From the NCBI RefSeq assembly GCF_001577365.1, contig NZ_CP014513.1, forward strand, positions 2,108,001-2,172,000: a stretch of DNA of 64,000 nt, in the 5' to 3' direction. The notes beneath the pieces were generated by a model, which worked only from the letters and a program-made list of their open reading frames with translations, searched no databases and had not been told where the DNA came from. This stretch comes from Frondihabitans sp. PAMC 28766 (GTDB lineage: Bacteria; Actinomycetota; Actinomycetes; Actinomycetales; Microbacteriaceae). Position numbers and translations under genes: made by a program. The first letter of the stretch is position 1; the number at the start of each line of letters is the position of its first letter. This document shows positions 7,831-28,341 of the stretch, piece by piece.

Positions 7831-9285
7831 GTGGAGCTTCGCGATTACATCACGGTGTTGCGCAAGGGATGGGTGCTCATCCTGGTGCTGGCACTCGTCG
7901 GCGTGGCCGCCGCAGCGGCCTATTCGATCGTCAAGAAGCCGGTGTTCAGCGCCTCGGCGCAGGTCTTCGTCTCGACGCAGTCGTCGGGCAGCGTGACCGA
8001 TCTGGTGCAGGGCTCGACGTTCACGCAGCAGCGGGTGACCACCTACGCGAACCTCGTGACGACCCCGATCGTGCTGCTGCCGGTCGCCACCAGCCTCAAG
8101 CTGAACCTCACTGCCGCGCAGCTGGCGGCGATGGTCTCGGCCGACGCCCCGCTCAACACGACCCTGATCCAGATCACGGCGACGTCGACGAACGCAGTCG
8201 AGGCGGCGAATATCGCGAATGCGACGTCGCAGAGCCTGACGAACGTGGTGCAGCAGATCGAGGCGACCGGTGCCACCGACACCTCGCAGGTGAAGCTGAC
8301 TCGAGTGCAGGAGGCGCAGGTGCCGAGCGCGCCGGTCAGCCCGAAGGTGCCGCTGAACGTGATCCTGGGCCTGCTCGTCGGTCTCGCTCTCGGCGTCGGC
8401 ATCGCCGTGCTGCGGGAGGCCCTCGACAACCGGGTGCGCAACGAGGCGGACGTCGAGCGGATCACCGACGCGCCGATCGTCGGCGGCATCGCGTACGACT
8501 CGAAAGCGTCGACGCGCCCCCTGATCGTGCAGGCCGACCCGCGGAGCCCCCGGTCGGAGTCGTTCCGCACGCTGCGCACGAACCTGCAGTTCTTGGACAT
8601 CGAGGGCAAGGCGCGCAGCTTCGTCGTCACCAGCTCGGTCCAGTCGGAGGGCAAGAGCACCACCGTCGCGAACCTCGCCATCACGCTCGAGAACGCCGGC
8701 TATCGCGTCATCGTGATCGACGCCGACCTGCGGCGCCCGAAGCTCGCGACCTACATGGGCCTCGAGGGCGCGGTCGGCCTCACCGACGTGCTGATCGGCC
8801 GTGCCGAGTTGCAGGATGTCGTGCAACCCTGGGGCCGCGGCTCTCTGCACGTGCTGCCCGCGGGCCAGATCCCGCCGAACCCGAGCGAGCTGCTCGGCTC
8901 GCGCCAGATGCAGAACCTGATCCAGCAGCTCGAGCAGCAGTACGAGTACGTGCTGTTCGACGCCCCGCCGCTCTTGCCCGTGACCGACGCGGCGATCCTG
9001 GCCAAGAGCGCCAGCGGCGCCATCGTCGTCGTGGCGGCCGCTCGCACGCTCAAGAACCAGTTGAGCGGCGCCGTCGCCACCCTCGAGAACGTCGGCGCGC
9101 CCGTGTCGGGCATCGTGCTCACGATGATGCCGACGAAGGGCCCGGACGCCTACGGCTACGGCCGCTACGGTTACGCCTCGGGCTACGGGGTGCCCGACGA
9201 CAAGGGCGGCGACAAGGGCTCTGACAACGAGCGCGACACCGAGCCGGTCGCCCTGCCCGTCGGCGTCCGCCGGACCTCGCGGTGA
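7831..9285 (+). CDS. Chain-length regulator fused to BY-type tyrosine autokinase (Wzc-like)
   Basis: The 484-residue protein combines a Wzz-type polysaccharide co-polymerase with a cytoplasmic bacterial tyrosine kinase. Two membrane helices (about residues 15-35 and 172-192) bracket an extracellular part. The kinase half has Walker A (SSVQSEGKSTTVANLA), Walker A' (VIVIDADLRRPKLAT) and Walker B (YVLFDAPPLL). The C-terminus has a Tyr cluster (DAYGYGRYGYASGYG), the expected autophosphorylation site. It should control length and export of the polysaccharide made by the neighbouring genes. Start is GTG at 7831 with GGGGAGG ten bases upstream. Its stop overlaps the phosphatase start by four bases, so kinase and phosphatase are coupled as wzb/wzc are in colanic acid loci. 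Confidence 0.93.
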   Translation: MELRDYITVLRKGWVLILVLALVGVAAAAAYSIVKKPVFSASAQVFVSTQSSGSVTDLVQGSTFTQQRVTTYANLVTTPIVLLPVATSLKLNLTAAQLAAMVSADAPLNTTLIQITATSTNAVEAANIANATSQSLTNVVQQIEATGATDTSQVKLTRVQEAQVPSAPVSPKVPLNVILGLLVGLALGVGIAVLREALDNRVRNEADVERITDAPIVGGIAYDSKASTRPLIVQADPRSPRSESFRTLRTNLQFLDIEGKARSFVVTSSVQSEGKSTTVANLAITLENAGYRVIVIDADLRRPKLATYMGLEGAVGLTDVLIGRAELQDVVQPWGRGSLHVLPAGQIPPNPSELLGSRQMQNLIQQLEQQYEYVLFDAPPLLPVTDAAILAKSASGAIVVVAAARTLKNQLSGAVATLENVGAPVSGIVLTMMPTKGPDAYGYGRYGYASGYGVPDDKGGDKGSDNERDTEPVALPVGVRRTSR

Positions 9286-9926
9286 GACCGGACGGCTCCC
9301 CGTTCGTCGTGCTGACGGTCTGCACGGGCAACATCTGCCGTTCGCCGCTGGCCGAGCAGCTGCTGCGGGCCCGCCTGGACGCTGCCGAGGGCACCTCGAC
9401 GGCGAACAGCGCCATGGCACACAACGCCACGCTGCACGGCTTCACGATCCACAGCGCCGGCACGATCGCCGACGACGGCGAGCCGATGGACGAGACGGCT
9501 GCCGAGATGTCGAGGCGCTATGGCGGCGCCCCTGACGAGCACCGCGCGCAGCACCTCCGCGCCGGCCTCGTCGCCGAGTCGCACCTCGTGCTGACGGCGA
9601 CCCGCGCTCACCGCGCCGCCGTCGTGCAGCTACTGCCGCGCGCCAGCCGCTTCACCTTCACCCTGAACCAGTTCGCCCGGCTGATCGCCGCCGTCGACCC
9701 GGCCGACCGTGCCGCGTGGCACCAGCCGGAGGACGTCGTCGCCTCAGCCGCGGCCCTGCGCGGCGTCGTCGTGCCGCCCGACGACGAGCGCGACGACGAC
9801 ATCGTCGACCCGTATCAGCGGGGTCTCGTCGTCCACGAAGAGGCGGCGGCCGAGATCGACGCCGACGTGGCCGTGATCGCGGCGGCCTTCGGTGAGCTGC
9901 CTCCGCTCGGGCAGGCTGGGGCCTGA
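9282..9926 (+). CDS. Low-molecular-weight protein-tyrosine phosphatase (Wzb-like)
   Basis: The product should dephosphorylate the Tyr cluster of the upstream kinase. The P-loop VCTGNICRSPLAEQLLRARL (CX5R) stands at the N-terminus as the family requires, and IVDPYQRG near residue 170 supplies the general-acid Asp-Pro. At 214 residues it is longer than the usual 150-160. The extra length lies mainly between the P-loop and the DP motif (GEPMDETAAEMSRRYGG and an acidic stretch PDDERDDD). The GTG start overlaps the preceding stop (GTGA) and the stop overlaps the next start (ATGA). Confidence 0.93.
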   Translation: MRPDGSPFVVLTVCTGNICRSPLAEQLLRARLDAAEGTSTANSAMAHNATLHGFTIHSAGTIADDGEPMDETAAEMSRRYGGAPDEHRAQHLRAGLVAESHLVLTATRAHRAAVVQLLPRASRFTFTLNQFARLIAAVDPADRAAWHQPEDVVASAAALRGVVVPPDDERDDDIVDPYQRGLVVHEEAAAEIDADVAVIAAAFGELPPLGQAGA

Positions 9927-27367: not shown

Positions 27368-28341
27368 CGATCAGTGACGGCAGCTTCGAGGCGCGGCCCC
27401 TGGACCGCGACGCGACTTTCTACATCGCCGGCCATCGCGGGCTGGTCGGCTCGGCCCTCTGGCGGAGCTTCAGTTCGGCGGGTTTTAGTGGCCTCGTCGG
27501 CAGGTCTTCCGGGGAACTCGACCTTCGCAGCCGCTCTGATGTCTTCGACTTCTTCCGAGAGGTGAAGCCGAGATACGTGGCTCTGGCCGCAGCAAAAGTG
27601 GGCGGCATTCTTGCGAACGACACGTATCCGGCCGATTTCCTCACCGAGAATCTGCAGATCCAACTCAACGTGATGGATGCTGCCGTCGAAGCCGGCGTCG
27701 AAAGGCTGATCTTCCTCGGGTCGTCGTGTATCTACCCGAAGTTCGCCGAACAGCCGATTCGCGAGGACTCTCTGCTGACCGGCCACCTCGAGCCGACGAA
27801 TGATGCGTACGCCATCGCCAAGATCGCGGGAATCATGCAGGTTCAGGCGGTTCGTCGTCAGCACGGCCTCGCCTGGATTTCAGCCATGCCGACAAATCTC
27901 TACGGGCCGGGAGACAACTTCGCGCCGAAGGGGTCTCATGTCCTTCCGGCTCTCATCCGTCGCTACGACGAAGCGGCACGAGACGGTCTCCCTACAGTCA
28001 CCAATTGGGGGACGGGATCACCTCGACGCGAGTTCTTGCACGTCGACGACCTCGCCGCGGCTGTTCTGCACCTTCTCGAAAACTACGACGGCCCGTCGCA
28101 AGTCAATGTGGGAACAGGCTCCGACGTGACGATCCGCGAGATCGCCGCTGCGGTAGCCGACGCGGTCGGGTTTTCGGGACACACCGAGTGGGACTCGAGC
28201 AAGCCCGATGGAACGCCTCAGAAGCTCTTGGACGTCTCCCTCCTGGCCGAACATGGTTGGCGGTCCACGATCGGGCTCGACGAGGGGCTGCGGTCGACTA
28301 TCGACTGGTACCACGCGAACGAGTCGTCAATCCGGCTCTGA
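27364..28341 (+). CDS. fcl: GDP-L-fucose synthase
   Basis: The bifunctional epimerase-reductase turns GDP-4-keto-6-deoxymannose into GDP-L-fucose with NADPH. The 325-residue protein has YIAGHRGLVGSALWRSF, LRSRSDVFDFF, AAAKVGGILANDTYPADFL, FLGSSCIYPKFAEQPIRED with the Ser and Cys of the active site, YAIAKIAGI (YxxxK), NLYGPGDNF and RREFLHVDDLA. The GTG overlaps the gmd stop, so both are translated together. The 3' end overlaps the convergent VanZ-like gene by 15 bases. Confidence 0.97.
   Translation: MTISDGSFEARPLDRDATFYIAGHRGLVGSALWRSFSSAGFSGLVGRSSGELDLRSRSDVFDFFREVKPRYVALAAAKVGGILANDTYPADFLTENLQIQLNVMDAAVEAGVERLIFLGSSCIYPKFAEQPIREDSLLTGHLEPTNDAYAIAKIAGIMQVQAVRRQHGLAWISAMPTNLYGPGDNFAPKGSHVLPALIRRYDEAARDGLPTVTNWGTGSPRREFLHVDDLAAAVLHLLENYDGPSQVNVGTGSDVTIREIAAAVADAVGFSGHTEWDSSKPDGTPQKLLDVSLLAEHGWRSTIGLDEGLRSTIDWYHANESSIRL

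What the first reader, a model, noticed from the sequence alone, without database searches (positions are those of the whole stretch)
7831..28341. A colanic-acid-like biosynthesis gene set in an actinobacterium
The window holds proteins resembling Wzc, Wzb and WcaJ (7.8-12.4 kb) and WcaB, WcaE, a polymerase, WcaC, Wzx, WcaF and WcaI next to gmd and fcl (17.9-28.3 kb). Several share long ordered motifs with the E. coli proteins as I remember them, for example EGGAAGVA and GWKTGC in the WcaC-like enzyme and the SHQAI segment in the WcaE-like one. Colanic acid is known from Enterobacteriaceae, whose export needs an outer membrane. Here export would pass through Wzx/Wzy, with LCP and DUF4012 proteins for wall attachment. 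No wza, manB/manC or wcaK/L/M counterparts are in the window, so the polymer should be fucose-containing but distinct.
Basis: partly seen in the sequence, partly recalled or inferred. Interest (0 to 1): 0.72.

Follow-up and report, generated by a model that had tools for sequence, protein, structure and literature searches.

The report
Clavan-type fucose-rich slime gene cluster
A Gram-positive actinobacterium carries distant relatives of the enzymes with which gut bacteria build the first four sugars of their colanic acid slime, in a set that Clavibacter also has and that fits the published sugar make-up of Clavibacter's fucose-rich polymer, clavan.

Summary
The transferases and polymerase are distant relatives of WcaC (31%), WcaE (34%) and WcaD (25%), consecutive in the E. 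coli order C-D-E, with WcaI-, WcaF-, WcaB- and WcaJ-like proteins, gmd and fcl. None reaches a Wca equivalog cut-off. "Colanic-acid-like" needs sharpening: the set matches only the first six assembly steps (J, I, F, E, C, B) plus the polymerase; no A, L, K or M relative was found in the cluster. It should build Gal(OAc)-Fuc-Fuc(OAc)-Glc. The same set occurs in a Clavibacter, a Cryobacterium, an Arthrobacter (no B seen) and a Microbacterium (no D). Among 398 Microbacteriaceae, strong C, D and E hits fall in the same four genomes: this one and three of Clavibacter's genus. Clavibacter's copy adds a pyruvyltransferase and holds the only gmd over cut-off. Published clavan is Glc:Gal:Fuc:pyruvate 1:1:2:1, with acetate and succinate. 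I infer a clavan-type pathway sharing colanic acid's trunk. Here the cluster has an acyltransferase-3 and no pyruvyltransferase, so a non-pyruvylated variant is expected. No sugar chemistry was tested.

The parts
7831..9285 (+). Short Wzc-like protein: Wzz domain fused to BY-kinase
   Evidence: TIGR01007 179 bits over cut-off 108; PF02706 Wzz; 28% to the kinase half of E. coli Wzc
9282..9926 (+). Wzb-like low-molecular-weight tyrosine phosphatase
   Evidence: PF01451 53 bits; 28% to Wzb
9926..10957 (+). Protein of unknown family between phosphatase and PGT
   Evidence: only a BNR repeat match below cut-off
10954..12417 (+). Polyprenyl-phosphate hexose-1-phosphate transferase (WcaJ-like; starts the repeat unit). 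Start chosen inside the longer frame 10825-12417
   Evidence: TIGR03025 399 bits over cut-off 296; WbaP model 310 and WcaJ model 296 bits, both below cut-off; 36% to the catalytic half of WcaJ
17888..18400 (-). WcaB-like hexapeptide acetyltransferase (start uncertain; frame runs to 18589)
   Evidence: 36% to WcaB, E 3e-24; TIGR04016 69 bits, below cut-off; cysE and EpsC models score higher
18420..19166 (-). WcaE-like GT2, predicted fucosyltransferase
   Evidence: TIGR04009 141 bits (next family 33); 34% to WcaE; profile comparison E 1.7e-58; best PDB match by sequence WrtF fucosyltransferase, 92 bits
19060..20355 (-). WcaD-like Wzy polymerase
   Evidence: TIGR04010 only family hit, 45 bits E 9e-12; 25% to WcaD E 7e-15; profile comparison 99.1%, E 8e-19
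20352..21617 (-). WcaC-like GT4, predicted galactosyltransferase
   Evidence: TIGR04015 170 bits (next family 23); 31% full length to WcaC
21676..22929 (-). Acyltransferase-3 membrane O-acyltransferase
   Evidence: PF01757 98 bits; no tblastn hit at E 1e-4 in L034-L037, only 23% (E 6e-4) to the AT3-SGNH protein beside Clavibacter's fcl
22965..24743 (-). Wzx-type flippase (true start uncertain, probably downstream of 24410)
   Evidence: PF01943 23 bits, below cut-off; 39% to the flippases of L035 and L037, 25% to Clavibacter's
24410..25033 (-). WcaF-like hexapeptide acetyltransferase
   Evidence: NF007797 WcaF family 147 bits (cut-off 192); 34% to WcaF
25049..26293 (+). WcaI-like GT4, predicted first fucosyltransferase
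   Evidence: NF007640 WcaI family 250 bits (cut-off 276); 31% to WcaI
26336..27367 (+). gmd, GDP-mannose 4,6-dehydratase; the only match in this genome over the Gmd cut-off
   Evidence: TIGR01472 508 bits over cut-off 415; one of four matches in G000 is over the cut-off
27364..28341 (+). fcl, GDP-L-fucose synthase
   Evidence: NF047922 434 bits (cut-off 500); 53% to E. coli Fcl
28327..28851 (-). VanZ-family membrane protein at the edge of the cluster
   Evidence: PF04892 63 bits
28838..30667 (+). DUF4012 protein, with relatives near the Cryobacterium and Arthrobacter clusters
   Evidence: PF13196 170 bits; 48% and 37% relatives in L034 and L035
32042..33517 (-). LCP (LytR-CpsA-Psr) protein, possible wall-attachment enzyme
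   Evidence: PF03816 128 bits

Best explanation
The locus encodes a Wzx/Wzy-dependent exopolysaccharide pathway that shares the trunk of the colanic acid pathway. Proposed order: the WcaJ-like PGT puts glucose-1-P on undecaprenyl phosphate. WcaI-like adds the first fucose. WcaF-like acetylates it. WcaE-like adds the second fucose. WcaC-like adds galactose. WcaB-like acetylates it. Wzx flips the tetrasaccharide Gal(OAc)-Fuc-Fuc(OAc)-Glc, and the WcaD-like Wzy joins the units through the same kind of linkage as in colanic acid. The glucuronate-galactose-pyruvate branch (A, L, K) is not made. The Clavibacter version, with a pyruvyltransferase, is the likely clavan locus; the window's cluster has an acyltransferase-3 and no pyruvyltransferase. 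Shown: gene content, homology, order, co-occurrence. Inferred: substrates, linkages, the clavan link, export and wall attachment.
For: C, E and D stand far above other families. Profile comparison of D with enterobacterial WcaD gives 99.1%, E 8e-19, against 1.6% for one control, the Microbacterium polymerase; WcaE gives E 1.7e-58. C-D-E order is kept in the window, Clavibacter, Cryobacterium, Arthrobacter and E. coli. Strong C (>700 bits), D (>620) and E (>390) hits fall in the same 4 of 398 Microbacteriaceae (the models hold some of these sequences, see against). RefSeq product names of E. coli wcaE and wcaA describe Gal-(1->3)-Fuc-(1->4)-Fuc-(1->3)-Glc-PP-Und with two O-acetyl groups as the state before WcaA acts. 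Passages of PMC4392319 and PMC10049144 give clavan as a Glc:Gal:Fuc:pyruvate 1:1:2:1 tetrasaccharide and Fuc:Gal:Glc:pyruvate:succinate:acetate as 4:2:2:2:1:3. The Clavibacter locus holds that set, with a PF04230 pyruvyltransferase between F and C and an AT3-SGNH acyltransferase beside fcl, and the single gmd over cut-off in each of 4 genomes of the genus. The WcaE-like model's top-ranked solved structures are WrtF fucosyltransferase, including GDP-fucose and acetylated-acceptor complexes.
Against: No protein passes a Wca equivalog cut-off, so donor and linkage may have changed. WcaB-like scores higher to serine acetyltransferase and EpsC models than to WcaB; the PGT scores slightly higher to WbaP (galactose) than to WcaJ (glucose). 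The co-occurrence models were built from these very sequences: A1 and A3 hold the window and two of the three Clavibacter-genus genomes, A5 holds the window and L036, so their high scores are by construction; the informative part is that no other drawn genome comes near, and the four genomes are only two lineages. In Clavibacter a GT4 with weak likeness to WcaL (26-27%) lies about 2.6 kb beyond fcl, so a side-branch sugar there is not excluded. The Clavibacter genomes examined are one named 'Clavibacter sp. VKM Ac-2873' and three unnamed; C. michiganensis itself was not examined by name. Clavibacter has four EPS clusters (passages of PMC4059874), so clavan is not tied to this one by experiment. 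The published clavan linkages could not be read. Arthrobacter shows no B hit in the stretch held, and Microbacterium has another Wzy. By Z alone AvpGT (21.1) is tied with WrtF.
Confidence: 0.7

Rival explanations
1. The enzymes descend from the same ancestors as the Wca proteins but have changed donors or acceptors, so the polymer contains fucose yet does not share the Glc-Fuc-Fuc-Gal trunk.
For: 25-34% identity for D, C and E and scores far below the equivalog cut-offs; the PGT scores slightly better to the WbaP model (310 bits) than to WcaJ (296); Microbacterium keeps C, E, B but has another Wzy and two more transferase-like genes.
Against: I, F, E, C, B and D have stayed together in the window, Clavibacter and Cryobacterium, and the predicted composition equals that of clavan.
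Confidence: 0.21
2. A complete colanic acid pathway whose distal genes (A, L, K) lie elsewhere in the genome.
For: A PF04230 pyruvyltransferase and a ManC homologue lie elsewhere in the genome; a weak WcaL relative lies near the Clavibacter cluster.
Against: The pyruvyltransferase region elsewhere shows no similarity at E 1 to the Clavibacter cluster's enzyme. WcaA is not found in the four actinobacterial loci or Solimonas but is in the other 75 of 80 loci kept. A genome-wide search for WcaA and WcaL was not made.
Confidence: 0.05
3. An ordinary EPS cluster whose likeness to the Wca proteins is only superfamily-level (any GT2, GT4, hexapeptide protein).
For: F, I, B and J belong to broad families; B fits cysE and EpsC models better than WcaB.
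Against: C and E single out their Wca families by more than 100 bits, D matches WcaD alone; C-D-E synteny and co-occurrence.
Confidence: 0.04

Closest known systems
Clavan of Clavibacter michiganensis (tetrasaccharide D-Glc, D-Gal, L-Fuc, pyruvate 1:1:2:1) and the homologous locus of Clavibacter sp. VKM Ac-2873 (L036)
   Same: J, I, F, C, D, E, B, gmd, fcl present, with C-D-E-B in the same order; predicted Fuc2-Gal-Glc with acetates
   Different: Clavibacter has a pyruvyltransferase between F and C, where the window has Wzx and an acyltransferase-3; Clavibacter has an AT3-SGNH protein and a weakly WcaL-like GT4 beyond fcl; that this locus makes clavan is inferred, not shown
Colanic acid (wca/cps) cluster of E. 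coli K-12
   Same: Relatives of WcaJ, I, F, E, C, B, D, Gmd, Fcl; C-D-E order kept
   Different: No Wza, WcaA, L, K, M, Gmm, ManB or ManC among the window proteins scanned; 25-36% identity for the transferases, PGT, acetyltransferases and polymerase; short Wzz-kinase
Loci of Cryobacterium melibiosiphilum (L034), Arthrobacter oryzae (L035) and Microbacterium gallinarum (L037)
   Same: WcaC-like 46-52% identical; J, I, F, E nearby
   Different: Pyruvyltransferase between F and C in Cryobacterium; no B hit in the Arthrobacter stretch; Microbacterium lacks the D polymerase and has further transferases
WrtF GT2 fucosyltransferase (PDB 9omh-9omn)
   Different: About 22% identity; different pathway; by Z alone tied with AvpGT

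Membership tests
Colanic acid cluster (E. coli type) | WcaC, WcaE, WcaD, WcaI, WcaF, WcaB equivalogs over curated cut-off | tested here: not met
   Scores 170, 141, 45, 138, 88, 69 against cut-offs 785, 369, 590, 800, 326, 195
Colanic acid cluster (E. coli type) | Side-branch genes wcaA, wcaL, wcaK in the cluster | tested here: not met
   No scanned cluster protein has them as NCBIfam or best BLASTP match; genome-wide only PF04230 was sought
Colanic acid cluster (E. coli type) | Wza outer-membrane exporter | tested here: not met
   No BLASTP hit to Wza among the 15 cluster proteins
Shared colanic trunk module (J, I, F, E, C, B, D) | Homologues of all seven with C-D-E consecutive | tested here: met
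   J, I, F, B belong to broad families
Clavan-type cluster (as found in Clavibacter) | Same biosynthetic gene set, C-D-E-B order | tested here: met
   To L036: F 71%, C 49%, D 43%, E 42%, B 55%, J 59%, I 36%, gmd 82%, fcl 73%
Clavan-type cluster (as found in Clavibacter) | Pyruvyltransferase in the cluster | tested here: not met
   Best window match to the Clavibacter pyruvyltransferase is E 0.31, far away at 42 kb
Clavan-type cluster (as found in Clavibacter) | Polymer Fuc:Gal:Glc 2:1:1 | not testable with these tools
   Needs sugar analysis
Wzx/Wzy-dependent EPS | PGT, Wzx, Wzy and Wzz-kinase present | tested here: met
   Wzx is below the Pfam cut-off but has 39% relatives in two clusters
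GT2 fucosyltransferase (WrtF-like) | Sequence and fold relation of the WcaE-like protein; use of GDP-fucose | tested here: inconclusive

The most novel reading that the evidence does not exclude
Clavan of Gram-positive Clavibacter and colanic acid of enterobacteria are two end products of one ancestral pathway: the same undecaprenyl-linked Gal-Fuc-Fuc-Glc core with the same polymerase linkage, to which enterobacteria added a GlcA-Gal(pyruvate) branch while actinobacteria modify the core directly (pyruvyltransferase in Clavibacter and Cryobacterium, another acyltransferase here). The window holds a further, non-pyruvylated form in a low-GC island.
Probability: 0.48. Interest if true: 0.68.

Novelty: new variant of a known kind. 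Interest (0 to 1): 0.55.

Why it matters
In the held library I found no paper that links clavan, or an actinobacterial EPS gene set, with the colanic acid pathway. The searches were made; most hits were judged from the listing, and passages of four doubtful ones were read (PMC7017822 only assigns single wcaB/wcaF reads from soil metagenomes to families). Most subscription papers are not held, so this is weak evidence of novelty. Passages of PMC4059874 report four EPS clusters in Clavibacter and tie none of them to clavan by name. If right, the finding gives gene-by-gene hypotheses for one of the most fucose-rich polymers, explains its composition, offers a natural minimal version of the colanic acid repeat, and shows a Wzy polymerase recognisable between two phyla, which is unusual for that fast-changing family (general knowledge).

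Tried and rejected
Recent transfer from enterobacteria, suggested by the 53-61% GC of 18-25 kb in a window of mostly 65-75%, was rejected. The window's C is 46-52% identical to the four actinobacterial copies and 30-33% to the enterobacterial ones. A 13-row tree puts the five actinobacterial copies together (88/89, not starred) and E. coli with Solimonas (94/98, not starred) (four rows were taken as longest frames of weak relatives, and the program warns of long branches). Transfer from another actinobacterium remains possible; GC of the Arthrobacter locus is 49-60% across its cluster genes.

A complete colanic acid pathway was considered and held unlikely (see rivals). The pyruvyltransferase elsewhere in the genome (C1:2382061) was considered as a missing part; its region shows no similarity to the Clavibacter one at E 1.

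Limits. The phylum search gave four further weak WcaC-like hits (65-128 bits) in 396 genomes. Searches scored at most 4 to 6 candidates per genome, so absence is not proven. In one search only 80 of 192 relatives were kept. Whether the Cryobacterium and Microbacterium species were among the 398 drawn genomes is not known; they do not show as matches there. Genes of L034 and L035 put into the failed, other than L034:8646-9575, were not scanned.

Literature: ten searches. Passages or one section only were read of twelve papers; none was read whole. The clavan linkage structure was not found, and the paper on the roles of six Wca proteins (PMC6445743) is not held; roles are taken from RefSeq product names, a review section and recall, as marked.

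Full report
What was checked. The window lies at C1:2108001-2172000 of a 4.77 Mb genome. It belongs to the same family as genomes of genus g34. Two of those, G034 and G109, match L036, Clavibacter sp. VKM Ac-2873, at about 92% over most of 21 kb, so g34 is Clavibacter and the family Microbacteriaceae. The window's own genus was not named by any search.

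Anatomy. On the minus strand, in transcription order: WcaF-like (24410-25033), Wzx (22965 to about 24410), acyltransferase-3 (21676-22929), WcaC-like (20352-21617), Wzy (19060-20355), WcaE-like (18420-19166), WcaB-like (17888-18400). On the plus strand, divergently: WcaI-like (25049-26293), gmd and fcl (to 28341). A separate run at 7831-12417 holds the Wzz-kinase, phosphatase, an unknown protein and the PGT. GC falls to 53-61% between 18 and 25 kb.

Homology tests. NCBIfam: WcaC 170 bits (next family 23), WcaE 141 (next 33), WcaD 45 as the only family; the broader WcaF and WcaI subfamily models give 147 and 250, under their cut-offs of 192 and 276; gmd is over its cut-off, fcl (434) under its cut-off of 500. 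The Wca equivalog cut-offs are missed by far. The other three were AT3 and VanZ, with hits at E 0.08 or more only, and DUF4012 with none. Profile comparison: D against enterobacterial WcaD 99.1%, E 8e-19; one control, the Microbacterium polymerase, gave 1.6%. WcaE: E 1.7e-58. Across actinobacterial and enterobacterial rows 36 columns of D (13 rows) and 31 of E (12 rows, Solimonas included) are invariant.

Relatives. One scan of genome contigs: 403 stretches matched, 192 encode a relative, 80 were kept. Four are actinobacterial (46-52% identity), one is Solimonas, and the other 75 are enterobacterial by their titles. wcaA is found in those 75, not in the other five. Clavibacter L036 reads fcl, gmd (reverse), I, F, pyruvyltransferase, C, D, E, B, Wzx, then J reverse; beyond fcl lie an AT3-SGNH protein and a GT4 with 26-27% likeness to WcaL. 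Cryobacterium reads J, F, pyruvyltransferase, C, D, E, B, further genes, I, DUF4012, Wzc. Arthrobacter has DUF4012, a UDP-sugar dehydrogenase, J, fcl, gmd, I (reverse), then F, C, D, E, with no B hit in the stretch held. Microbacterium has fcl, gmd, I (reverse), F, a GT11-like gene, Wzx, C, E, B, a GT2, a protein in the polymerase place unlike D, and J reverse. The window's Wzx is 39% identical to those of Arthrobacter and Microbacterium but only 25% to that of Clavibacter, so the flippase is the least conserved part.

Co-occurrence. In 398 Microbacteriaceae: D in 4 of 398 at E 1e-10, all over 620 bits; C in 9 of 398 at E 1e-15, four over 700 bits and five at most 99 bits; E in 5 of 398 at E 1e-30, four over 390 bits and one at 114. 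The strong four are the same each time: this genome and three of g34. Caveat: the models contain the window and Clavibacter sequences, so the scores themselves are by construction, and the four genomes are two lineages. What counts is that D is found in no other of the 398 and that C and E fall off steeply. In this genus C is in 1 of 7. With the independent model TIGR04015, 16 of 199 match at E 0.001, three of them at over 150 bits (this genome, G034, G109) and the rest at 36 bits or less. In the phylum draw 5 of 396 match at E 1e-15, the window's own included.

Mechanism. RefSeq names describe the E. coli order: WcaE adds fucose to acetylated Fuc-(1->3)-Glc-PP-Und; WcaA acts on acetylated Gal-(1->3)-Fuc-(1->4)-Fuc-(1->3)-Glc-PP-Und. 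The window's set stops just before WcaA. It would give a Fuc2-Gal-Glc unit with two acetylation sites. That WcaF acts on the first fucose and WcaB on galactose is recalled from work I could not open and fits the acetyl positions.

Clavan. [quoted passage not shown] A passage of PMC10049144 gives 4:2:2:2:1:3 for fucose, galactose, glucose, pyruvate, succinate and acetate. The Clavibacter locus carries a candidate transferase for each sugar, two acetyltransferases and a pyruvyltransferase, and an AT3-SGNH protein that might succinylate (guess). The one match over the Gmd cut-off in each of four genomes of the genus (G034, G109, G650, G790) lies in this locus. Each of those four has one or two further PF04230 genes elsewhere. 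None of the four is named C. michiganensis, and passages of PMC4059874 report four EPS clusters in Clavibacter, so the assignment is inference.

The window's variant. No pyruvyltransferase was found in the cluster. Its acyltransferase-3 has no close match in the four relatives' stretches and 23% identity to Clavibacter's AT3-SGNH protein. I expect the same core without pyruvate, with an extra acyl group. GDP-mannose could come from a ManC homologue elsewhere (C1:3827937, 38% identity). Export without Wza fits a cell with one membrane; LCP and DUF4012 as wall-attachment proteins is a guess.

Judgement. The locus is a member of the Wzx/Wzy EPS kind and a new variant: a clavan-type cluster built on the colanic acid trunk. 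It is not a colanic acid cluster.

Noticed in passing
window 19060-19166 (minus): The polymerase and WcaE-like frames overlap by 107 bases; in Clavibacter L036 by 101 bases. Possibly translational coupling.
   Followed up: partly
window 17134-17826: A frame at the edge of the low-GC island starts like a DJ-1/PfpI protein (recalled likeness, no call) and then loses the pattern, as if broken.
   Followed up: no
window 9926-10957: Protein of unknown family between phosphatase and PGT; only a sub-threshold BNR repeat.
   Followed up: no
G000 C1:2600202 and C1:493179: Two further PF02397 sugar transferases: the genome probably has other EPS-type loci.
   Followed up: no
L037 7803-14610: Microbacterium gallinarum keeps C, E, B but has a GT11-like gene, a GT2 and a protein unlike D in the polymerase place: polymer and Wzy seem to have changed together.
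   Followed up: partly
L052: Solimonas soli carries C, E, F and B relatives, a second pair of E- and C-like matches, and gmd 78% identical to E. coli; no wcaD or wcaA match.
   Followed up: no
L036 957-4731: Beyond fcl of the Clavibacter cluster: a GT4 weakly like WcaL and an AT3-SGNH acyltransferase.
   Followed up: partly
L034, L035: DUF4012 proteins accompany the EPS locus in the window, Cryobacterium and Arthrobacter; function unknown.
   Followed up: no
window 48635-53084: LigD and Ku genes for non-homologous end joining.
   Followed up: no
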